A stretch of 20,150 nucleotides of DNA, taken from positions 1-20,150 of IMG/VR virus record IMGVR_UViG_3300018481_000090, one strand, 5' to 3'. The notes below the pieces were generated by a model. The model had not been told where the DNA came from and did no database searches. It saw nothing but the letters and a program-made list of their open reading frames with translations. This document shows positions 135-18,373 of this stretch, piece by piece. Source of the stretch: a virus. Within the stretch, counting starts at the first letter, position 1. The number at the start of each line of letters is the position of its first letter. Made by a program: the position numbers and the translations under genes.

Positions 135-371
135 GTGCACATCACCCACGACGAGTTGGTCCGACGCTTCAACTACCACCGCCCCAACACCGAAGCGAAG
201 GTGGAGAGGCATCAGCAAATCCGCGAAGCCTGCTTGGCCGCCGCGGAGACGATCGTCGACGTCACGGGACCTCCGTCACGTGAGCAGTCGACGGCTATCA
301 CCAAGCTCGAGGAGGCGATGTTCTGGGCGAACGCCGCCGTCGCTCGGGAGATCACCGCCCCAACCGAGTAG
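135..371 (+). CDS. acb2: Acb2/Tad1-hairpin-type cyclic nucleotide sponge (anti-CBASS)
   Basis: This 78-residue protein matches the small phage Acb2 (T4 Vs.4-like) family. The N-terminus reads RRFNYHRPN, followed by a basic helix, then SREQSTAITKLEEAMFWANA and AVARE near the C-terminus, the block I recognise from actinophage members. Acb2 proteins assemble into small helical oligomers that bind cyclic di- and trinucleotides made by CBASS sensors and so keep the effector from firing. The start is GTG at 135, six bases after GGAGG. An ATG at 122 lies in another frame. Length fits the family, usually under 100 residues. The family call rests on motif memory and the ligand is inferred, not shown. 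It sits alone before the packaging genes and may be expressed early in infection. Confidence 0.8.
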   Translation: MHITHDELVRRFNYHRPNTEAKVERHQQIREACLAAAETIVDVTGPPSREQSTAITKLEEAMFWANAAVAREITAPTE

Positions 372-5878: not shown

Positions 5879-8239
5879 ATGAGTAACCTCGTCATCGTGG
5901 CCATTCCTGACGAGAATGACCGCGTGTGGAAGGTTTCGAGCGAAGAGATCCCACACATGACGCTGCTGTTTCTTGGCGAGGCCGACGAGGTCGCCAATCT
6001 TCAGCAGATCATCGAGTTCACGGAGCACGCGGCCAACACCACGCTGCGACGCTTCTGGCTGCCGGTGGACCGGCGGGCCGAGTTGGGCGAAGACAAGGCG
6101 GATGTCCTCTTCTTCAAGAAGGGTCGCTACGACTACAAGGCAATCCGGGATTTCCGTGTCCAGCTGCTGAAGGACGACAACATCCGGACTGCCTACGACT
6201 CATCTCCGCAGCACGAAGGCGTGTGGCAGCCGCACCTGACGCTGGGCTATCCGGGCAAGCCCGCCAAGCCGGACGAGACGGATCGGGACTACGGGTTCTA
6301 CGATGTGCAGTTCAACAAGATCGCCGTCTGGCCCGAGGACTACAACGGTCCCGAGTTCCTGCTCAAGGACTACTGGGACGAGTACGAGGCTCTGGAGAGC
6401 GTGCCCATGGACGTCGCCATGAGCAGCGTGAACCAAGCTCGCATCGCGCTCGGGCTGGATGCCGTCGAGAACATCGAGCACTACGGCGTCAGGGGCATGC
6501 GCTGGGGCGTGCGCAAGGAGGACGTCGAGAACGCGGCCAAGAGCGGTACGTCAGCTGTCGCCAAGGCAGTGGCGGATGTCAATCGGTTCGCAGGTGATGT
6601 TCAGTTCGAAGCCCGTACTGCCCCCCGCACGGATTCCGAAACCGGCGCAGAGAAGGACAGCAAGGCTCGCGAGCTGGTCATCGGCGCCGCGCACAAGGAC
6701 TTCAAGGCGAAGGACTTGTCGGCGATCAACGCCAAGCCGGAGTACGAGAAGACGAGGAAGCTCCACAACCGGTTGTTGAAGCCGTTCGACAAGACGACCA
6801 AGGCCTACCGGGCCGAGGTGAAGGCTGCCTATATTCAGCGGCTGGAGACCACGGCCAACGCGATGAAGAATCCGTCGGGTACGCGCGAGTACTCGATTCG
6901 TGAGCGTGGTGGCGATCTGCCCAAATCGAAGTACTACTGGGAGGTCAGCACTCGCGAAGCGCGCCACGCCGCAGGTGACGACTTCACCCTGGTCGAGGTG
7001 CTCACCGATGACGACGGCTTCATCACGGGCACCAAGGTGGTCAAGGCCGAGAGCACGATGGCCCAGACTGCCGATCTCGGCGCCGATTTTCTGGCTCACT
7101 ACGGCGTCAAGGGCATGAAGTGGGGCGTCCGCAACGAGAGAGGCGGATCCAACACTTCCAGTGTTGGCGAGAAGAAGCGAGAAGGAATTCAGCGATTCCT
7201 GGATCCTCAGGGCAACGATCTGGGCACCGACATCGTCAAGTCGGTTCTCTGGCCCATGGTTCCGCCGCTTGGGCTCTTCGCCATTCCGTCCGATATTCGC
7301 CTGGCCCGCGCGGGTGCGCGTGGAGTCAAGGCCAAGGTCATCGACGCCAACGAGAAGCACTTCGAGAAGAAGGCGCAGTCGGCCAAGAACTTCGTCGCCA
7401 TCCACAACGGATCAGGTGAGCGCGTCAATCGCGAGCTCGAGACGATCAACAAGAAGTACCCCAAGCCGAACGTCGACGCCGCGACGCAGGCGAAGTACGA
7501 CAAGGAAGTTCTCACGATGATGCAGAAGGCCTACAAGGAGTCGGCCAACTCGCTCACCAACAAGTTCAACACGCGCCATCTCGACGTCGAGTTCAAGGGC
7601 GACGGGATGGATGTCAAGATCTCGGCGAAGGAAGGACCGGGGACTCCGCTTCCGCAGCGGGTCAAGCACGCGGATGAGGATGAGGACGAGGTCTTCACCT
7701 TCCACGCCAAGTTCAAGCGTGACACCGAAGGGCACATCGTCGGCATGGAGTTCGAGGACTTCGAGAAGCCCGAGGTACCCAAAGAGATGGCACAGTCTGC
7801 CATCATCATGGGTTCCCAGCTTGTCCTCGAGCACTACGGGGTCAAGGGCATGCGCTGGGGTGTGCGTCGCAATCGGGAAACCCCGTCGGCAGTGGATGCC
7901 ATGGCTACGTCTCGGGTGCCACACGGGGCAAAGCGCAAGACCAAGATCGACACCGAGGGCGGGGAGAACCATCCCGCCGCCGACGACGCCATCAAGGTGG
8001 CCAAGTCTCGGGTCAAGCTGGCCAAGAGTGGCACCGCCGCGCTTTCCAACCAGGAGCTCCGTGAGGTGGCCAATCGCCTGCAGCTTGAGCAGCAGGTGAA
8101 GCAGCTGACGGCTCCCGCGGGCAAGAAGTTCGTGACCAATCTGCTGCGGAGCGAAACCCAGCAGGGCGGCCAGATGCTCTTCAGGAAGGGTGTCAAGAAG
8201 GGCGGCAAGGGGGTCAGGAAGGTCGCACTCGGGTTCTAG
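5879..8239 (+). CDS. 2H phosphoesterase domain protein with three HYGVKGMRWGVR tags
   Basis: The ATG follows AGGAGG (5868-5873). Residues 1 to about 190 are a 2H phosphoesterase-like domain: H26-M-T28 (PHMTLLFLG) and H119-L-T121 (WQPHLTLGY). This superfamily opens cyclic phosphates or cuts cyclic and 2'-5' nucleotides (LigT, Acb1). Three tags follow: residues 201-212, 407-418 and 652-663. They divide the rest into segments: about 214-405 (unknown, basic), 420-650 (charged, helical) and 665-786 (helix with LSNQELREVANRLQLEQQ, then GKKFVTNLL, basic end). The last segment recalls actinophage head-associated proteins. The gene precedes the large terminase, suggesting virion assembly. Enzyme activity, target and any processing are inferences. 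It may act on the host after ejection. Confidence 0.75.
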   Translation: MSNLVIVAIPDENDRVWKVSSEEIPHMTLLFLGEADEVANLQQIIEFTEHAANTTLRRFWLPVDRRAELGEDKADVLFFKKGRYDYKAIRDFRVQLLKDDNIRTAYDSSPQHEGVWQPHLTLGYPGKPAKPDETDRDYGFYDVQFNKIAVWPEDYNGPEFLLKDYWDEYEALESVPMDVAMSSVNQARIALGLDAVENIEHYGVRGMRWGVRKEDVENAAKSGTSAVAKAVADVNRFAGDVQFEARTAPRTDSETGAEKDSKARELVIGAAHKDFKAKDLSAINAKPEYEKTRKLHNRLLKPFDKTTKAYRAEVKAAYIQRLETTANAMKNPSGTREYSIRERGGDLPKSKYYWEVSTREARHAAGDDFTLVEVLTDDDGFITGTKVVKAESTMAQTADLGADFLAHYGVKGMKWGVRNERGGSNTSSVGEKKREGIQRFLDPQGNDLGTDIVKSVLWPMVPPLGLFAIPSDIRLARAGARGVKAKVIDANEKHFEKKAQSAKNFVAIHNGSGERVNRELETINKKYPKPNVDAATQAKYDKEVLTMMQKAYKESANSLTNKFNTRHLDVEFKGDGMDVKISAKEGPGTPLPQRVKHADEDEDEVFTFHAKFKRDTEGHIVGMEFEDFEKPEVPKEMAQSAIIMGSQLVLEHYGVKGMRWGVRRNRETPSAVDAMATSRVPHGAKRKTKIDTEGGENHPAADDAIKVAKSRVKLAKSGTAALSNQELREVANRLQLEQQVKQLTAPAGKKFVTNLLRSETQQGGQMLFRKGVKKGGKGVRKVALGF
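6479..6514 (+). repeat. Tag copy 1, HYGVRGMRWGVR
   Basis: This copy lies at residues 201-212 of the 786-residue protein, right after the 2H domain and preceded by E. It differs from the other copies by R in place of the first K. Confidence 0.85.
7097..7132 (+). repeat. Tag copy 2, HYGVKGMKWGVR
   Basis: This copy lies at residues 407-418, preceded by DFLA. It has K in place of R before the tryptophan. Confidence 0.85.
7832..7867 (+). repeat. Tag copy 3, HYGVKGMRWGVR
   Basis: This copy lies at residues 652-663, preceded by LVLE. Its DNA is nearly identical to that of the copy at 13386, differing only at scattered third positions. Confidence 0.85.
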
Positions 8240-8254: not shown

Positions 8255-10000
8255 GTGGCGCTGTCCAATACTGCAGTCCCGGTGTACTACGGGCAGTTTC
8301 GTCACGCGGTGATGCGCGGAGAAATTCCGGTCAACCGGGAGATCTCTATGGAGATGAACCGGATCGACGCGCTCATCAAGAACCCGAATTTCTACTACGA
8401 CGATCAGGCGGTGGAGGGTTTTCTGCGCTTCTGTGAGGGTGAGATGACCCTGACGGATGGCAACGACCTCCACCTCCTGTTCACTTTCAAACTGTGGGCC
8501 GAAGAGATCCTCGGTTGGTACTACTTCGTGGACCGGTCGGTCTACGTCCCCTCGGATGGTGACCACGGTGGGCATTACGAGAACCGGACGGTAAAGATCC
8601 GTCTGGTCAAGAAGTTTTACCTCATCGTGGCCCGAGGTGCGGCCAAGTCGATGTTCGCGGCGCTGATCCAGGCGTACTTCATGACCGTTGACACGGCGAC
8701 CACGCACCAGATCACAACGGCCCCGACCATGAAGCAGGCGGAAGAGGTCATGTCACCCATCCGCACTGCCATAACTCGTGCTCGGGGACCGTTGTTCAAG
8801 TTTCTTACCGAAGGCTCGATGCAAAACACCACGGGCAATCGGTTGTTGCGACAGAAGTTGGCAGCGACCAAGAAGGGCATCGAGAACTTCCTCACTGGAT
8901 CACTGCTCGAGATCCGGCCGATGGCCATCAACAAGCTTCAGGGTCTACGGACCAAGATTGCCACCATCGATGAGTGGCTTTCCGGTGATCTCCGAGAGGA
9001 TGTCATCGGCGCAGTGGAGCAGGGCGCTTCCAAGCTGGACGACTACTTGATTCTCGCCATCTCTTCGGAGGGAACCGTTCGTAACGGTTCGGGTGACACA
9101 ATCAAAATGGAACTCCATGACATCCTCAAGGGTGAGTACAACGCTCCCCACATTTCGATCTGGCACTACAAGCTGGACGAGTTGGAGGAAGTCAGCGATC
9201 CAGCCATGTGGCTGAAGGCCAATCCCAATCTTGGTCAAACCGTGACATACGAGACGTATCAGTTGGACGTCGAACGCGCCGAGAAGGCTCCGGCAGCGCG
9301 CAACGATATTCTCGCCAAGCGGTTTGGTATCCCGATGGAGGGGTACACGTACTTCTTCACCTACGAGGAAACGCTGATTCATCGCGTCCGCGAGTTCTGG
9401 CAGCTACCCTGTTCGTTGGGGATGGATGCTTCGCAGGGCGACGACTTCTGGGCTTTCACCTTCATGTTTCCGCTGGGTGGAGATCGCTACGGGATCAAGA
9501 CGAGGAGTTACATCACCGAGCGGACACTCTTCCTGCTTCAGCCCGCCATGCGACAGAAGTACGAGGAGTTCATCAACGAGGGCTCGCTCCACGTGATGAA
9601 CGGGACGATCTTGGATTGGGAAGAGATCTACGACGATCTCGATCGATTTATCATCGCCTCGGAGTACGATGTTCGGTCTTTCGGATACGACCCATACAAC
9701 GCCAAAGAGTTCGTCAAGCGTTGGGAGGCGGAGAATGGTCCTTTCGGTATCGAGAAAGTTATTCAGGGAGCTAAGACGGAATCTGTTCCGCTGGGTGAAC
9801 TGAAGAAGCTTTCCGAAGACCGTCGCCTCATATTCGACCAGGTGTTGATGCAGTTTGCCATGGGCAACGCCATCACTCTGGAAGACACCAACGGAAACCG
9901 CAAACTCCTCAAGAAGCGTCAGGAGGAGAAGATCGACAACGTGGCGGCCCTTATGGACGCCTACATCGCTTTCAAAGCCAATCAGGAGGCCTTCGAGTAA
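8255..10000 (+). CDS. terL: Terminase large subunit
   Basis: This 581-residue protein has the HK97-type (Terminase_1) layout. Residues 126-132 ARGAAKS are the ATPase P-loop, an ARGxxKS variant, and KIATIDEW places the Walker B pair at D239-E240. The nuclease carboxylates are D391 (GMDASQGDD), D479 ([11 protein letters not shown]) and D561 or D568 ([12 protein letters not shown]). It pumps DNA into the prohead and cuts it. The start is GTG at 8255 after a GGAGGAGG run, and length is normal. The stop TAA overlaps the ATG of the next gene at 10000, and the final codons (EAFE) also act as its ribosome site and spacer. TerL is separated from portal by some 6.5 kb of fibre-like genes. Confidence 0.93.
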
Positions 10001-10018
10001 TGCCGCCCGGAATTACCA
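9984..10018 (+). repeat. Start-leader repeat, copy 1 (inside terL end)
   Basis: AGGAGG, a 10-base spacer CCTTCGAGTA, then ATGCC and the first codons (PPGIT). This copy is constrained because its spacer codes for the terminase C-terminus. It recurs at 10614 and 11680, and in diverged form at 12734. Confidence 0.8.
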
Positions 10019-10608
10019 ATGCCATTGTGCTTCAGACCGGAGCCAAGGCCGCTGAAGGTCAGGATTACATGCGACTGGCGCTGTTCGACGAGGCCGGTCA
10101 GCCGATCAACCTGACGGGCGGGGAGCAGGGACTGCAGGGGGTGCAAGGACCTCCAGGTCCGGCGGGAGCACAGGGATTGCAAGGCCCGCAGGGTCCTCAG
10201 GGAGCCACCGGTTCTCAAGGAACGCAGGGTCCGAAGGGTGATCCGGGAGTTGCAGGCCCTCCCGGTTCGGTGGCGACGCTTCTCTGGGCGCCATATCCCA
10301 AGGCGAACGGTTGGAAGTACTACCACGAGCAGTTCCCGGCCGATGAGTTCGGTGACCCCGCTTACTGCATTCTGGGTTCGTTGGTGTTCCTTACCGGAGC
10401 CTGGTACTGCGGCGACGTCAGCGGCGCCATGGCTCAGCTTCCCGTTGAAGCTCGTCCGGTTCGGCGTCAGCGGTTGATCTTCAATCAGGGGCAGGCCTTT
10501 GTCAGCCTCGATATGGACACCGACGGCCGCCTGAAGACTGGGGGCGATGGGGTGCCCCCCACCTCAAGCGCCCTCATGATGATGGGCTTCTACCGGCTTA
10601 CCAACTGA
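10000..10608 (+). CDS. Collagen-like fibre protein, short paralogue
   Basis: This 202-residue protein begins [20 protein letters not shown], then a conserved anchor [18 protein letters not shown] (residues 24-41), then about 16 Gly-X-Y triplets (residues 41-88). A beta-type head follows ([13 protein letters not shown], then DMDTDGRLK, ending in MMMGFYRL). Collagen-like triplets in phages form trimeric stalks of tail fibres or head decorations. Head residues resemble the repeated domain of the 4756 gene. It overlaps terL by one base, so the two are translated together. Which structure it joins is not shown. Confidence 0.75.
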
Positions 10609-10613
10609 TTGAA

Positions 10614-10648
10614 AGGAGGCCTTCGAGTAATGCCACCCGGAGTTACCA
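10614..10648 (+). repeat. Start-leader repeat, copy 2
   Basis: The same AGGAGG and 10-base spacer precede ATG at 10630, with two base changes in the first codons relative to copy 1. It lies in an intergenic gap and is free of any coding constraint. Confidence 0.8.
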
Positions 10649-11652
10649 GGGCCCAGATACTTACAGGCCCCAAGGCTTTACGTGAGTCTATGGGCAATGA
10701 GTACATGCGGCTCGTCTTGTTCGACGAAGACGACAACCCATTCAACTTGACCGGGGGAGAGACCGGGCCTGAGGGTCCTATGGGTCCGGCTGGCCCGAGG
10801 GGTGACACCGGTCTGAAGGGGGACAAGGGTGACAAGGGCGATACCGGTTCTCCGGGAGCCAAGGGAGATACCGGTGCTCAGGGCCCGACCGGGACGAAGG
10901 GTGACAAGGGTGATCCTGGTAACACAGGCCCCCCTGGAGAGCAAGGAGATCCTGGAACGCCTGGAGAGCAAGGCCCCGAAGGCCCTGCCGGACAGTCGGC
11001 CAGCATTTTCGAGTTCATGTTCTCTACGGCGCTCACCGAGCCACCGACTGGTTCGGAGGTTCGACTGAACCATGCCTCGGCATCCTCGGCGACGAAGCTG
11101 TGGGTGCGTCACTCGACTGTGGATTCGGTTGATATTTCCAACTTGATGGCGTTGACGCAGGTTGGGGATCGGCTGACCGTGCAAGACAAGGATGAGCCGG
11201 GCAAGATCCAGCGATTCAACGTGACGTCGATTACTCCGAAGTCGAGTTACATGGAATTTGGAGTGACGTTCGTGAGTGGTGGATCACCGCTGACCGCACA
11301 ACGAGTGATGCTTCTGCTCGGACGTGCCGGTACCCCAGGACGCGGAGTTCCGAGCGGCGGTACCACAGCGCAAGTACTACGCAAGAAGACCAATTCGGAT
11401 TACGACACCGAATGGGCAACGAGTGAGGGTGGGTCTACCGATCTGTCAGAGCTCCAGGATACGGTGTCGACGGTTCAGACCGAGCTGGGGAACCTCAAGT
11501 CTCTGGTCGAATCGCCAGCGGGAGGGGATCTGGAGGGAACGTATCCGAATCTGACCGTTCCCTACATGGCTCAGATTCAGATCCAGATCACCAATCTCGA
11601 AGGACTTATCCAAGCTCTCGACGGACGAGTCGCAGCTCTCGAATCAGCGTAG
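10630..11652 (+). CDS. Collagen-like fibre protein, middle paralogue
   Basis: The ATG at 10630 is chosen over an in-frame TTG at 10609 because the repeated leader ends there. The 340-residue product shares the MPPGVTRAQILTGPKALRES and [18 protein letters not shown] anchor with its neighbours. About 27 Gly-X-Y triplets follow (residues 43-123), rich in GDKGDKGDT. The C-terminal part differs: a beta region (SASIFEFMFSTALTE, then DRLTVQDKDEPGK), then GVPSGGTTAQVLRKKTNSDY and DTEW, a pattern seen in tail-fibre proteins, then coiled-coil heptads to the end. It probably trimerises. The stop lies inside a 22-base palindrome. Confidence 0.75.
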   Translation: MPPGVTRAQILTGPKALRESMGNEYMRLVLFDEDDNPFNLTGGETGPEGPMGPAGPRGDTGLKGDKGDKGDTGSPGAKGDTGAQGPTGTKGDKGDPGNTGPPGEQGDPGTPGEQGPEGPAGQSASIFEFMFSTALTEPPTGSEVRLNHASASSATKLWVRHSTVDSVDISNLMALTQVGDRLTVQDKDEPGKIQRFNVTSITPKSSYMEFGVTFVSGGSPLTAQRVMLLLGRAGTPGRGVPSGGTTAQVLRKKTNSDYDTEWATSEGGSTDLSELQDTVSTVQTELGNLKSLVESPAGGDLEGTYPNLTVPYMAQIQIQITNLEGLIQALDGRVAALESA

Positions 11653-11664
11653 ATCTACGCTGAT
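11643..11664. terminator. 22-base perfect palindrome, possible terminator
   Basis: ATCAGCGTAGA is followed directly by its reverse complement TCTACGCTGAT. The stop codon TAG (11650-11652) lies within it. Next comes CCATATTTTATAACC, which is T-rich but broken. A hairpin with a small loop would be stable, so a partial intrinsic terminator fits. A dimeric repressor operator is an alternative. Confidence 0.45.
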
Positions 11665-11679
11665 CCATATTTTATAACC

Positions 11680-11714
11680 AGGAGGCCTTCGAGTAATGCC
11701 GCCCGGAATCACCA
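11680..11714 (+). repeat. Start-leader repeat, copy 3
   Basis: AGGAGG, 10-base spacer and the first codons are nearly identical to copy 1. It begins nine bases after CCATAT at 11665-11670. Confidence 0.8.
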
Positions 11715-12733
11715 GAGCCATGATTCTCACGGATCCGAAGTCGTTGGATGAGGCTTTGGGGAATGAGAGCATGCGGCTCGTGTTGTTCGACGAGCATGGA
11801 CAACCGTTCAATCTCGTCGGCGGAGAGACCGGCCCTGCGGGGCCGATGGGTCCGGCCGGTCCTCGAGGGGACATCGGACTGAAGGGAGACAAGGGAGACA
11901 AGGGAGATACGGGATCTCCGGGAGCGAAGGGTGATACGGGAGTTCAGGGTCCGGCTGGGCCGTTGGGTCCGGCTGGTTCGGTTGGCCCGGCTGGGCCGAA
12001 GGGTGATCCGGGAGAACCCGGTCAGACGGGAGCTAAGGGAGACAAGGGCGATACCGGTAACACCGGTGGCCAAGGTCTTCAAGGGGTCAAGGGCGATACC
12101 GGATTCGTCGGTCCGCAGGGGCCTCAAGGACCGCAAGGTCCTGAAGGGCCTCAAGGCGCTTCAGCGTTGGCTATTCCGATTGTCACCGCTCTTCCTACGG
12201 ATCCGGATGACGGCGACGAGGTCTACTTCCAGAACGCTGTGATGGCGACGGCAGGTGTTCGCTGGCGCTTCGCCTTTCGGCAAGGCTCGGCGGGTACGCA
12301 TAAGTGGGAGTACGTTGGCGGCGCCATGTTGTACTCCAAGATTGCGGCTACACACCAGGTCAATCCCACACCCAACGATTACGCCGATGTTGGCACTCCG
12401 GGAAACGGGTTTGGTCCGGACATTGTGTGCCCACTCCCGGGTGAGTACGAGTACTACTCGTGCGCATATTTGTATACCAACGCGGCAAGTTACGGCCTGG
12501 TAGGGACGATCATCTACCGCGTCGGAGCAGGAGGTGGCGCTATCGGTCCGGGAACTCAAGTCCCGCTTCCGAACGCCCGATCAATCTATGTTTACGGCGG
12601 TGGACCTCTCGCTCAGGATTTAGTCAAGGGCGTGACCTATCGTCTTCGATATTTCTTCGAGACGCCCCCGGCTTCGGTCGGGAACGCGGGTAACCGCATT
12701 TTCGGCCTCAAGCCGATCCGAGTTTCCCCCTAA
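11696..12733 (+). CDS. Collagen-like fibre protein, long paralogue
   Basis: This 345-residue protein has the same start ([20 protein letters not shown]) and anchor ([18 protein letters not shown]). It has about 38 Gly-X-Y triplets at residues 43-156, with GPKGDP and GDKGDT repeats. The C-terminal head begins [17 protein letters not shown] and continues through a WRFAF and KWEYVGG block common in tail-fibre proteins, then a beta region ([15 protein letters not shown]) to the end. The collagen part matches that of the middle paralogue over the first thirteen triplets and then diverges, so the genes look duplicated and then recombined. Virion location is inferred. Confidence 0.75.
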
Positions 12734-13307: not shown

Positions 13308-14537
13308 ATGCGACTGGGTGAGACCCAGGACTTTGCCTCCCCAGGGGAGGCGCTCAAAGCACTCGAGGAAGCGACGGTCCTCGAGCACTACGGGGTCAAG
13401 GGAATGCGCTGGGGAGTGCGCAAGAAAGAAGAACTTTCTGGCCGCGACTCGGCAAAAAAGAACGAAGAAGTAAAGGTTCAACTGGCACCCGGTCTTCCGG
13501 AGTTCCAGCAACGGATCGAGAAGATCACCAGGACTGATAATCCTCAGGTGCTCAGTCCTCAGAAAGATGAAGGTGGGCGAGTCGGAGCTCAGCAACCCAA
13601 GGAAGAGAAGAGTGGGTTGTCGCGTGAGCAAAAGCTCTGGATAACTTTCGGCGCAGTCAGTGTTGCGGCGGCCGGATATTACGCCTACAACCAGTACCAA
13701 GGCAACAAAATGCCTGGTATCAGCGATCTCGAAAAGCTCAGGCAAGAAACCCTGAAGCTGGATCAGATGACGCTCCCGTCCAAGTGGGATGTTCGCGGAC
13801 TGAAAGATGGTCCGATCAGCACTACGAGACTGGGCCAGCTGGCGGGTGATGAATTCAACGCCAGGCTTCTCGATGCGGATAATCTGGTGGTCAACACTTC
13901 TCGAGGCTACGCCGATATTCTGCCGAAGGATGGATTCAGCAATCCGTTTGCGGCAGAGCAACATGACAGCGTTATCCGAGTTCTCGATGAGATGCGCGAG
14001 AAATTCCCCGCTATTCGCAACATGAACATCGAAGTGATTCCGTTTTCCAAGGTTCCCGGCGTGAACGGCAGTAGCGCGCATATGTGCGTTCAGACCATGC
14101 GTGCCGGAGAAGCCCGAGTCATGTACAACGACATGATGAAGGCACCGAGCGCTTCGACAATTCGAGCGAATCGTAACTTCCTCCCCGGTTTGGGGAAGAA
14201 GGACTACGTGGCGTATCACGAGATGGGTCACTTACTTGCTGCCGCAGGTGGTGATCTACCTTCGACGTTCGATCTTCTGAGCAACAAAGCTAGCCCCACG
14301 GCTTGGAGGACGTGGCAGAAAGCTGAACCTCTGCTGCACAAGAAGCGGTTCGTCAAGCATGGCTTCACGTTCAAGGAGCTTTCGAAGCTGAGCCAGTACG
14401 CAGCCACAGAGCCTGCCGAAGCCATGGCCGAATTGGCTGGTCACTATTTCCATCCCGAAATGCGAGCGAAGTTGACCTCAGATCAGCTTCGTCGGGCCAA
14501 GGCAATGTTCGACGAAATGGGAGGGGTGACGGGATGA
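13308..14537 (+). CDS. Tagged zinc-metallopeptidase-like protein
   Basis: The 409-residue product carries the tag HYGVKGMRWGVR at residues 27-38 after a short lead. A charged linker and a hydrophobic segment follow (about 110-128, WITFGAVSVAAAGYYAY). The C-terminal domain has HEMGH at 304-308, the zincin HExxH pattern, with a possible third ligand in TEPAEAMAELAGHYFHPEM (E371 or E375). This resembles a gluzincin-type site. The ATG follows AAAGGAGG (13294-13301). Its tag matches that of the 2H protein, so both may be loaded into the virion by the same route. A 50-residue gene overlaps its stop. Its target is unknown; it could be a capsid-processing enzyme or an ejected effector. Confidence 0.7.
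   Translation: MRLGETQDFASPGEALKALEEATVLEHYGVKGMRWGVRKKEELSGRDSAKKNEEVKVQLAPGLPEFQQRIEKITRTDNPQVLSPQKDEGGRVGAQQPKEEKSGLSREQKLWITFGAVSVAAAGYYAYNQYQGNKMPGISDLEKLRQETLKLDQMTLPSKWDVRGLKDGPISTTRLGQLAGDEFNARLLDADNLVVNTSRGYADILPKDGFSNPFAAEQHDSVIRVLDEMREKFPAIRNMNIEVIPFSKVPGVNGSSAHMCVQTMRAGEARVMYNDMMKAPSASTIRANRNFLPGLGKKDYVAYHEMGHLLAAAGGDLPSTFDLLSNKASPTAWRTWQKAEPLLHKKRFVKHGFTFKELSKLSQYAATEPAEAMAELAGHYFHPEMRAKLTSDQLRRAKAMFDEMGGVTG
13386..13421 (+). repeat. Tag copy 4, HYGVKGMRWGVR
   Basis: This copy lies at residues 27-38 of the metallopeptidase-like protein, preceded by VLE. The DNA is close to that of tag copy 3. Confidence 0.85.
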
Positions 14538-16487: not shown

Positions 16488-17813
16488 ATGGCAAAGTTCG
16501 GAGATCGGATACGGCACGCCTGGAATGCGTTCGTCGACAGTGACAGCGCCAGGAACCGACCGATCGAAGTCACCGGTGGTGGCGGTTCATATTTCGGTGG
16601 ACAGCCTCATCGAATGCGTCCACGGTATTCGAACGAGCGATCGATCATCTCCTCGATCTACACCCGGATCGGAATCGATGTGGCCGCGGTGCCTATGCGA
16701 CATGTTCGTGTGGACGATACGGGTCGATATCTCGAAGACATCATCAGCGGTCTTGACAGCTGTCTGACCCTCGAGGCCAACATTGATCAGGCTGGTCGGG
16801 CCTTTCGACAGGACATCATCATGACCGTCCTGGATGAAGGTGTCGCTGCCATTGTTCCGGTGGACACCACGCTGTCGCCTGAGGAATCGGGTGGTTGGGA
16901 CATCAAGACCTTGCGGGTGGGTCGGATCACATCGTGGTTCCCGCAGCATGTTCGGGTTTCGTTGTACAACGAGGCGCGCGGTATGCGTGAGGAGATCACG
17001 TTGCCGAAGAAGATGGTGGCGATCGTCGAAAACCCACTATATTCGGTGATGAACGAGCCGAATTCGACTCTGCAACGTCTCATCCGAAAACTCAACATGC
17101 TGGACGAGACGGATGAGAAGGCGTCCTCGGGCAAGCTGGACATCATCATCCAGCTTCCGTATGTGATCAAGTCGGAAGCACGTCGGCAACAGGCTGAACA
17201 ACGACGTAAGGACATCGAGTTCCAGCTGTCGGGGAGCAAGTACGGCATCGCCTACACCGATGGCACTGAGAAGGTCGTTCAGCTCAACCGTGCGGTGGAG
17301 AACAATCTGCTGCCGCAGATCCAGGAGCTCAAGACCCAGCTTTACGGTGAGCTGGGACTCACGCCTGAGGTCATGAACGGTACAGCAGACGAAAAGGTCA
17401 TGCTGAACTACTACGCCCGAACCATCGAGCCGATGCTCGATTCGGTGATCGAGGCGATGATCCGCACCTTTCTCACCAAGACGGCGCGCACGCAAGGTCA
17501 GTCGATCATGTACTTCCGGGATCCGTTCAAGTTCGTCCCGATGGGTGGCGAAGGCGGCATCGCCGATATCGCCGACAAGTTCACTCGTAACGAGATCGTC
17601 TCGTCCAACGAGATTCGACAGGGCATCGGCATGAAGCCCCGTCCCGAGCCCAAGGCCGATGCGTTGATCAACTCCAACATGCCGCAAGCGGATACTGGAG
17701 TGGACATCACCGACGCCGAAGTGGTCGAAGAAGAAGATCCCGTGGTGGCTCAGCTGACCGAAGGGTTGGCGACATCCGAAGCTGAGATCGATGCCGCACT
17801 GGCGGGTGGGTAA
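16488..17813 (+). CDS. Portal protein
   Basis: The ATG follows AAAGGAGG, with a short spacer. The 441 residues match phage portals of the HK97-like kind: a basic N-terminus, RSIISSIYTRIGIDVAAVPM in the body, a long coiled helix (QIQELKTQLYGELGLTPEV), then MNGTADEKVMLNYYARTIEP, and RDPFKFVP before a domain that starts EIVSSNEIRQGIGMKPRPEP. The end is acidic. Portals form the ring through which DNA enters and leaves the head. It is directly followed (TAATG overlap) by a basic coiled-coil protein and then the protease/capsid fusion, the usual head module. Confidence 0.9.
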   Translation: MAKFGDRIRHAWNAFVDSDSARNRPIEVTGGGGSYFGGQPHRMRPRYSNERSIISSIYTRIGIDVAAVPMRHVRVDDTGRYLEDIISGLDSCLTLEANIDQAGRAFRQDIIMTVLDEGVAAIVPVDTTLSPEESGGWDIKTLRVGRITSWFPQHVRVSLYNEARGMREEITLPKKMVAIVENPLYSVMNEPNSTLQRLIRKLNMLDETDEKASSGKLDIIIQLPYVIKSEARRQQAEQRRKDIEFQLSGSKYGIAYTDGTEKVVQLNRAVENNLLPQIQELKTQLYGELGLTPEVMNGTADEKVMLNYYARTIEPMLDSVIEAMIRTFLTKTARTQGQSIMYFRDPFKFVPMGGEGGIADIADKFTRNEIVSSNEIRQGIGMKPRPEPKADALINSNMPQADTGVDITDAEVVEEEDPVVAQLTEGLATSEAEIDAALAGG

Positions 17814-18373
17814 TGCAGACGCCCACCGAACTCGATCTCCAGCACATCGGTCAGTTCGTTTCGAACTACGACCCAGTCAAGGCTCATGAGTACTACGAGC
17901 GGACCAAGAAGCTGAAGGGTCGTCGAAGGGGGACTACGTCAGACCCCCGGACCGGCAAGACCATGGGGCAGATCTCCAAGGATGCCCGGGCCAAGCAACG
18001 CACGGAACTCGCCGCCCGTATCCAATCTCTCTCCAGGAAACTGCAGAAGCTCGAAGCCAAGATTCGAGAGATGGAAACAAAGGAGGCCAGCGAGGATCGC
18101 AAAGGTGAGGCCAAGAGAGAGCGCGCAGCCAAGGAGGCAGAAAAGCCGAAGACCGCGGCAGAAAAGCGTGAAGCGGCTCGCGAGGCTGAAAAGTATCGCG
18201 ACAAAAATCAGCAAAAGCTGAAGAGCGACGCGAAAGACGCCAAGTCTGGCGGCGGTAACGCCAAGGATTCGAAGTCGAAATCGAAGTCTTCTTCGCTTTC
18301 CGACCTCAAGGCTCTGGCTACTAAGGTGAAGGGGCAGATCGCCGTCGCCAAACAGAAGCTAGCTGCGCTCTAA
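17813..18373 (+). CDS. Basic coiled-coil head-morphogenesis protein
   Basis: The ATG overlaps the portal stop. The 186-residue product has an N-terminal YDPVKAHEYYERTKKLKGRR motif (residues 19-38), which I recall from phage head-morphogenesis proteins. A heptad-rich helix follows (LAARIQSLSRKLQKLEAKI), then a Lys/Glu/Ala/Ser low-complexity tail and a final LKALATKVKGQIAVAKQKL helix. It lies between portal and capsid, where scaffolds are often coded, so a scaffold role is plausible. It is very basic, unlike many scaffolds, and might bind DNA or the portal instead. Confidence 0.55.
   Translation: MQTPTELDLQHIGQFVSNYDPVKAHEYYERTKKLKGRRRGTTSDPRTGKTMGQISKDARAKQRTELAARIQSLSRKLQKLEAKIREMETKEASEDRKGEAKRERAAKEAEKPKTAAEKREAAREAEKYRDKNQQKLKSDAKDAKSGGGNAKDSKSKSKSSSLSDLKALATKVKGQIAVAKQKLAAL

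What the first reader, a model, noticed from the sequence alone, without database searches (positions are those of the whole stretch)
5879..6480. 2H phosphoesterase domain in a late-gene protein, alongside an Acb2-type gene
H26xT28 and H119xT121 have the spacing of the 2H fold, the fold of the Acb1 anti-CBASS nuclease. The same window has an Acb2-type sponge at 135. The phage may hold two tools against cyclic-nucleotide defence, one possibly delivered with the virion. The domain may equally be a generic RNA or nucleotide repair enzyme.
Basis: inference. Interest (0 to 1): 0.6.

Follow-up and report, generated by a model that had tools for sequence, protein, structure and literature searches.

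The report
Tagged phage-head enzyme with phosphoesterase domain
A phage gene next to the DNA-packaging motor encodes a nucleotide-cutting enzyme (2H phosphoesterase) joined to a short repeated peptide that, across many phages, marks varied proteins encoded at the same packaging genes; this suggests a cargo tag for enzymes the virus carries into its host, which can be tested directly.

Summary
Residues 1-180 of the 786-aa ORF at 5879-8239 form a 2H phosphoesterase: H26xT28/H119xT121, LigT-family profile hits, a confident AlphaFold2 model matching LigT/CPDase/Usb1 (Z 12-13), and dN/dS about 0.1-0.2. It belongs to the 2H superfamily but not recognisably to Acb1 (Z 8.6; profile-profile probability 53%, covering only the second HxT). 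The neighbour at 135 is a real Acb2/Tad1-hairpin gene, but this pairing is mostly limited to the window's own clade.

In 63 of 65 non-fused 2H relatives the protein carries this tag. In phages of an unrelated terminase/portal lineage the same 2H domain is fused to MuF and/or capsid-maturation-protease proteins, with no DUF7211 anywhere in the genome. In a pattern-based IMG/VR sample, 69 of 74 tag loci hold the window-type terminase; the nearest tagged ORF lies a median 4 bp away, and all 161 are on its strand. Tagged proteins carry 2H, GNAT and papain-fold toxin domains. Best reading: a virion-loaded 2H effector. Its substrate (cyclic-nucleotide signal or RNA) remains open.

The parts
5879..8239 (+). 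786-aa ORF: 2H phosphoesterase domain followed by three DUF7211-tagged modules; ends 16 nt before TerL
   Evidence: phrog_24711, 3e-77
5879..6418 (+). 2H phosphoesterase domain, aa 1-180
   Evidence: Pfam, AlphaFold2, fold searches
5954..5962 (+). first HxT motif, H26-M-T28
   Evidence: invariant in 58 relatives
6233..6241 (+). second HxT motif, H119-L-T121
6479..6514 (+). tag 1, HYGVRGMRWGVR (DUF7211), aa 201-212
   Evidence: PF23847 1.3e-11
6524..7084 (+). module m2 (aa 216-402), unknown domain homologous to m3
   Evidence: hhalign 98.7%
7097..7132 (+). tag 2, HYGVKGMKWGVR (DUF7211), aa 407-418
   Evidence: PF23847 5.1e-15
7139..7822 (+). module m3 (aa 421-648), helices plus beta strands, no fold match; order relative to m2 varies between relatives
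7832..7867 (+). tag 3, HYGVKGMRWGVR (DUF7211), aa 652-663
   Evidence: PF23847 8.9e-14
7868..8236 (+). module m4 (aa 664-786), C-terminal module shared with most 2H relatives
8255..10000 (+). terminase large subunit, the lineage to which the tag is linked
   Evidence: PF20441 4.1e-37, phrog_9 1.6e-110; linkage
13308..14537 (+). second tagged protein: DUF7211 (13386-13421) plus M90-like metallopeptidase with HExxH
   Evidence: M90 match 19 bits, below the cut-off of 26.2
135..371 (+). Acb2/Tad1-hairpin protein, candidate nucleotide sponge
   Evidence: PF24729 1.2e-19
16488..17813 (+). portal protein of the same head lineage
   Evidence: phrog_12 1.3e-34

Best explanation
The ORF encodes a virion-loaded effector. 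The N-terminal 2H domain is an active, metal-independent phosphoesterase using the two HxT motifs for acid-base catalysis. The DUF7211 peptide (HYGVKGMKWGVR), here in three copies, is a linear tag that brings the protein to the growing head made by the TerL-portal-protease/capsid module it is encoded beside. The protein enters the new host with the DNA, so the 2H domain acts before phage genes are expressed, most likely on a host phosphodiester nucleotide: first choice an immune signal (CBASS-type cyclic oligonucleotide), second choice RNA or RNA 2',3'-cyclic-phosphate ends. Shown here: fold, catalytic residues, purifying selection, tag identity, and tag linkage to TerL/portal. Inferred: loading, injection, substrate. 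My separate estimates: catalytically active 2H 0.9; head-associated 0.7; injected effector 0.6; immune nucleotide as main substrate 0.4.
For: (1) 2H fold and intact tetrad; dN/dS 0.09-0.20. (2) Tag in 62 of 65 non-MuF 2H proteins by pattern, plus one variant, HFGKKGMKWG, in L056. (3) Of 79 loci listed from a tag-pattern scan of IMG/VR, 74 carry a tagged ORF and 69 of these hold the window-type TerL; nearest tagged ORF median 4 bp away; 161 of 161 on its strand. 40 further loci of the same scan, on which the TerL profile was not built: 34 with TerL, median 16.5 bp, 72 of 72 same strand. Untagged neighbours are mostly TerL, portal and head protease. (4) In phages with unrelated TerL and portal the same 2H domain is fused to MuF (PF04233) or lies in the large protein between portal and capsid; those five genomes hold no DUF7211, the ten tag-type ones all do. 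Two different head anchors for one domain argue for head loading. (5) Lactococcus phage 1706 gp07, directly upstream of TerL, has two tags and is deposited as 'structural protein'. (6) Tagged proteins carry enzyme or toxin-like domains: 2H (8 of 130), papain-fold Gln_amidase (7), GNAT (4), then GNAT 9 of 100 in a second set. (7) No RNA ligase PF09414 or RtcB in 15 2H-bearing phage records, which disfavours a self-contained RNA-repair pathway. (8) Earlier proposals that MuF/portal-fused 2H domains are injected and act on RNA or immune nucleotides: PMC5512222, PMC9503650.
Against: No virion proteomics or enzymology was available; the 1706 'structural protein' label could not be traced to its experiment. 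Two 2H relatives (L053, L065) lack the tag, though they lie directly upstream of the portal gene. Tag-TerL linkage also fits non-cargo roles (assembly factor, outer head protein). Substrate specificity cannot be read from the fold: nearest structures are CPDase, LigT and Usb1, and Acb1 scores lower. Of Acb1's base-stacking residues, only the F107 position is aromatic here (F/Y/H in 58 of 58; H112 in the window); the W74 position, by my own hand-extended alignment, is G/D/A.
Confidence: 0.5

Rival explanations
1. The 2H domain is an RNA enzyme: it opens 2',3'-cyclic phosphates or trims RNA ends (LigT/Usb1-like), countering host tRNA- or RNA-cleaving defences, or acting as an injected RNase.
For: Nearest structures are CPDase, LigT, YjcG and Usb1 (Z 12-13); the NCBIfam model for RNA 2',3'-cyclic phosphodiesterase hits weakly (2.2e-5); Iyer et al. 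2017 suggested RNase activity for MuF/portal-fused 2H domains.
Against: No ATP-dependent RNA ligase PF09414 or RtcB in 15 2H-bearing phage records; the T4 Rnl1 search found nothing in the controls either, so it is uninformative. Host repair enzymes could still partner with it.
Confidence: 0.3
2. A phage anti-CBASS nuclease of the Acb1 kind, working together with the Acb2-type sponge at 135.
For: Shared 2H fold and HxT/HxT tetrad; phmmer and profile search rank the penguinpox cGAMP PDE first among solved structures (E 0.04 and 0.0013); aromatic residue at the Acb1 F107 position; real Acb2-hairpin gene nearby.
Against: Acb1 scores below LigT-type enzymes (Z 8.6 against 12-13); Acb1 profile gives 53% probability over 47 columns; Acb2 is absent from 9 of 10 named 2H phages and from all 18 large tag-bearing records searched.
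Confidence: 0.2
3. The tagged proteins are head assembly or structural parts (e.g. scaffold, portal-bound or outer head proteins) and the 2H domain is a passenger with no role in the host.
For: Constant place next to TerL and portal; a 1706 homologue is labelled 'structural protein'; the m4 module is shared by most relatives.
Against: The 2H active site is kept under purifying selection while tagged proteins vary widely in their other domains; the domain also occurs in an unrelated head lineage.
Confidence: 0.15

Closest known systems
2H phosphoesterases of MuF/portal-fusion and polyvalent phage proteins (Iyer et al. 2017, PMC5512222; 2022, PMC9503650)
   Same: 2H domain in late-gene, multidomain phage proteins, proposed to be packaged and injected; the Microbacterium/Arthrobacter relatives found here are such MuF fusions
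   Different: Here the head link is not MuF but the DUF7211 peptide, in an unrelated TerL/portal lineage, with multiple tags separating modules
Acb1 (T4 gp57B), anti-CBASS nuclease
   Same: 2H fold, HxT/HxT tetrad; phage-encoded; T4 acb1 lies beside ipI, an injected internal protein gene
   Different: Acb1 is an untagged solo 152-aa protein; sequence profiles barely match; the present domain is structurally nearer LigT/CPDase
Avipoxvirus cGAMP PDE (PDB 9bkq/9ciw)
   Same: Best hit among solved structures by sequence; shares the 'LGxxxxAxV' and 'WxPHxTxGY' stretches
   Different: Match is weak (E 0.0013 with the profile); untagged, animal virus, substrate here untested
E. coli LigT / plant CPDase / human Usb1
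   Same: Highest structural similarity (Z 12-13)
   Different: Cellular solo RNA/nucleotide enzymes, not in a tagged phage head-gene protein
T4 internal proteins with capsid-targeting sequence (IPI-III, Alt)
   Same: Functional analogy: short peptide brings diverse effectors into the head for injection
   Different: Different peptide, often several copies and internal rather than a single N-terminal one; cleavage by the head protease not tested

Membership tests
2H phosphoesterase superfamily (LigT-like) | two HxT/S motifs at 2H spacing | tested here: met
   H26xT28, H119xT121, invariant in 58 relatives; also in 11 of 11 named-phage homologues
2H phosphoesterase superfamily (LigT-like) | 2H fold | tested here: met
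   model over known 2H structures, Z up to 13.1
2H phosphoesterase superfamily (LigT-like) | phosphodiesterase activity | not testable with these tools
   needs protein
Acb1 anti-CBASS nuclease | HxT/HxT tetrad in a 2H fold | tested here: met
   Acb1 aligned at Z 8.6 over 120 residues
Acb1 anti-CBASS nuclease | sequence-profile kinship to the T4 Acb1 family | tested here: not met
   probability 53%, 47 columns only; no Acb1 hit at E<=10
Acb1 anti-CBASS nuclease | nucleobase-stacking aromatics Y12, W74, F107, W147 and E141 with C-terminal lid | tested here: inconclusive
   F107 position F/Y/H; W74 and Y12 positions not aromatic by a hand-extended alignment; lid region low-confidence in the model
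Acb1 anti-CBASS nuclease | cleaves CBASS cyclic nucleotides | not testable with these tools
   needs enzymology
DUF7211 (PF23847) | profile match above the curated cut-off (27 bits) | tested here: met
   four matches of 39-50 bits in the window; none in 14 control genomes
MuF-fusion effector/toxin | MuF domain in the same polypeptide | tested here: not met
   no MuF match in the window ORF; present in relatives L017, L018, L020
T4-type capsid-targeted internal proteins | targeting peptide cleaved by the head protease | not testable with these tools
   no virion protein data
Acb2 sponge (gene at 135) | Acb2/Tad1 hairpin domain | tested here: met
   PF24729, 70.6 bits against a cut-off of 27
Acb2 sponge (gene at 135) | ligand-binding residues and cyclic-nucleotide binding | not tested
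   not examined residue by residue

The most novel reading that the evidence does not exclude
DUF7211 is a general head-loading (and injection) tag of one large terminase/portal lineage of tailed phages: a roughly 12-residue peptide that marks a rapidly exchanged set of enzymes (2H, GNAT, papain-fold toxins, metallopeptidase-like proteins) as virion cargo, so that a phage's injected arsenal can be read from its genome. The window protein carries several tagged modules in one chain.
Probability: 0.5. Interest if true: 0.85.

Novelty: new variant of a known kind. Interest (0 to 1): 0.6.

Why it matters
That phages carry 2H enzymes into hosts has been proposed but lacked a loading signal outside MuF/portal fusions. 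If the DUF7211 peptide is that signal, many 'hypothetical proteins' beside terminase and portal genes in actinobacterial and Firmicutes phages become predicted injected effectors, readable by a 12-residue motif and testable by virion proteomics in existing laboratory phages. It would also give a portable tag for loading proteins into heads of this lineage, and would place a nucleotide-cleaving enzyme in the cell before host cyclic-nucleotide defences respond.

Tried and rejected
Acb1 membership: rejected on profile comparison, although the fold is shared. Functional pairing with Acb2: considered; co-occurrence is mostly clade-limited (the last had no positive control of its own), so it is not used as evidence of function. 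RNA-repair cassette: searched for PF09414, PF01139 and PF09511 in 15 records, none found (PF09511 uninformative because no control rang). PADLOC: no hit. Portal-adjacent protein with 'YDPxKAHEYY...LKGR' as the tag's partner: motif in only 5 of 79 tag loci, so not a general partner. Fold of module m3: model of low confidence (mean pLDDT 67), no match in Foldseek at E<=0.001; no claim made. Literature searches for DUF7211, for the peptide itself, and for packaged effectors with a short motif found nothing on the tag; the two papers that would document 1706 and ReqiPepy6 virion proteins are not held. The EMBO Rep 2025 phage 'phosphoesterase' is a metallophosphoesterase, unrelated. Random-placement control for tag-TerL distance was poor, since small loci make short distances likely (53% within 100 bp by chance, overlaps included), so the argument rests on TerL presence in most loci and on strand identity.

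Full report
What is in the sequence. The window is a 20,150-base virus record carrying a tailed-phage late region: Acb2-type gene (135), HNH endonuclease (827), M15 and M23 peptidases (1269, 1975), connector (3614), tail proteins, the 786-aa ORF in question (5879-8239), TerL (8255-10000), collagen-like tail proteins, a second tagged ORF (13308-14537), portal (16488), a lysine-rich portal-adjacent protein (17813), and what reads as a protease-capsid fusion running off the end.

It is a 2H phosphoesterase. The domain alone scores 27.7 bits to LigT_PEase (cut-off 23.3) and 25.2 bits to 2_5_RNA_ligase2 (cut-off 27); 23 of 23 relatives match the latter. AlphaFold2 on a 58-sequence alignment gives mean pLDDT 87 with a core above 90. 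Second-look structural Z-scores are 13.1 for plant CPDase, 12-12.6 for LigT, YjcG and Usb1, 8.6 for Acb1 and 8.6 for the penguinpox cGAMP PDE. dN/dS against five relatives is 0.09-0.20. The second HxT was part of the collection search pattern, so I rely for it on the 11 named phages found by tblastn without motif selection, all of which keep both motifs.

It is not recognisably Acb1. A profile of T4 Acb1 and its relatives matches only around the second HxT (53% probability, 47 columns). One detail is suggestive: the Acb1 base-stacking position F107 is F, Y or H in all 58 relatives. The other stacking positions do not appear to match, by a hand-extended alignment.

The tag. After the 2H domain come three copies of HYGVKGM(K/R)WGVR, Pfam DUF7211, each opening a module. 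The last module is shared with most 2H relatives; the two middle ones are homologous to each other (hhalign 98.7%) and swap order between relatives. Of 65 non-MuF 2H proteins, 62 carry the tag by pattern and one more a variant; two (L053, L065) do not and sit directly upstream of the portal gene.

Where the tag occurs. In the first 79, 172 non-redundant tagged ORFs appear, typically with one tag near residue 16, often in tandem arrays. Sixty-nine of the 74 loci with a tagged ORF hold the window-type TerL; the nearest tagged ORF is a median 4 bp away, and 161 of 161 share its strand. Forty further loci from the same scan repeat this: 34 with TerL, median 16.5 bp, 72 of 72 same strand. Chance placement in these short loci would also put about half within 100 bp, so TerL presence and strand are the stronger facts. 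The scan was by pattern and limited in rows, so it is a sample, not a census. Untagged neighbours are TerL, portal, head protease and major tail protein. DUF7211 matches none of 14 control genomes.

The same enzyme on another anchor. In Microbacterium, Arthrobacter and Curtobacterium phages the 2H domain is part of the large protein between portal and capsid genes, mostly annotated as capsid maturation protease or MuF-like fusion; Pfam finds MuF in three of five scanned. Their TerL and portal do not match the window lineage, and the five such genomes searched contain no DUF7211, against ten of ten tag-type records. One enzyme domain attached to head proteins by two unrelated means is what cargo loading would predict; the exclusivity itself follows head lineage and so is not independent evidence.

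A labelled relative. Lactococcus phage 1706 gp07, in the same place upstream of TerL, has two tags and no 2H domain and is deposited as 'structural protein'. I believe this label comes from virion protein analysis, but could not read the paper. ReqiPepy6 has eight DUF7211 matches; one of its tagged proteins is likewise labelled structural.

What the tag carries. In 130 tagged ORFs Pfam finds 2H domains (8), papain-fold glutamine deamidase toxin (7) and GNAT acetyltransferases (4); a second set of 100 chosen to exclude recognised 2H proteins gives GNAT (9), Gln_amidase (3) and 2H (2). Most have no named domain.

Function. Iyer and colleagues proposed that MuF/portal-fused 2H domains are packaged, injected and act as RNases or against immune nucleotides. 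The present data extend this to the tagged lineage. For RNA: the nearest structures. For a signal: no RNA ligase PF09414 or RtcB in 15 2H-bearing phage records, the poxvirus cGAMP PDE as best sequence hit among solved structures, and an Acb2-type gene in the window clade. Acb2 is found in 4 of 5 larger records of that clade, 1 of 10 named phages and 0 of 18 large tag-bearing records, so it mostly reflects ancestry. I favour an immune nucleotide, at about 0.4.

Verdict. Observation confirmed; interpretation partly supported. The new element is the DUF7211 tag and its linkage to one head lineage, with virion loading inferred, not shown.

Noticed in passing
13308-14537: Second DUF7211-tagged protein with an HExxH motif (AYHEMGH) and weak Peptidase_M90 similarity; a candidate metallopeptidase cargo.
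   Followed up: partly
135-371: Acb2/Tad1-hairpin gene; also found in 4 of 5 larger records of the window's clade and in Curtobacterium phage Sunfish.
   Followed up: partly
L015 (Rhodococcus phage ReqiPepy6) 11454-16546: Six consecutive tagged ORFs downstream of TerL; eight DUF7211 matches in the whole genome.
   Followed up: partly
17813-18373: Portal-adjacent lysine-rich protein with a 'YDPVKAHEYYERTKKLKGRRRG' stretch conserved in many relatives at the same place.
   Followed up: partly
10000-12733: Three neighbouring ORFs with long collagen-like G-x-y repeats, probably tail or fibre proteins.
   Followed up: no
named phages (L014 and others): The 2H gene is widely annotated 'RNA ligase' in actinobacteriophage records, from the old name of the LigT family.
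   Followed up: no
L053, L065: Short untagged 2H proteins of about 200 aa directly upstream of the portal gene.
   Followed up: partly
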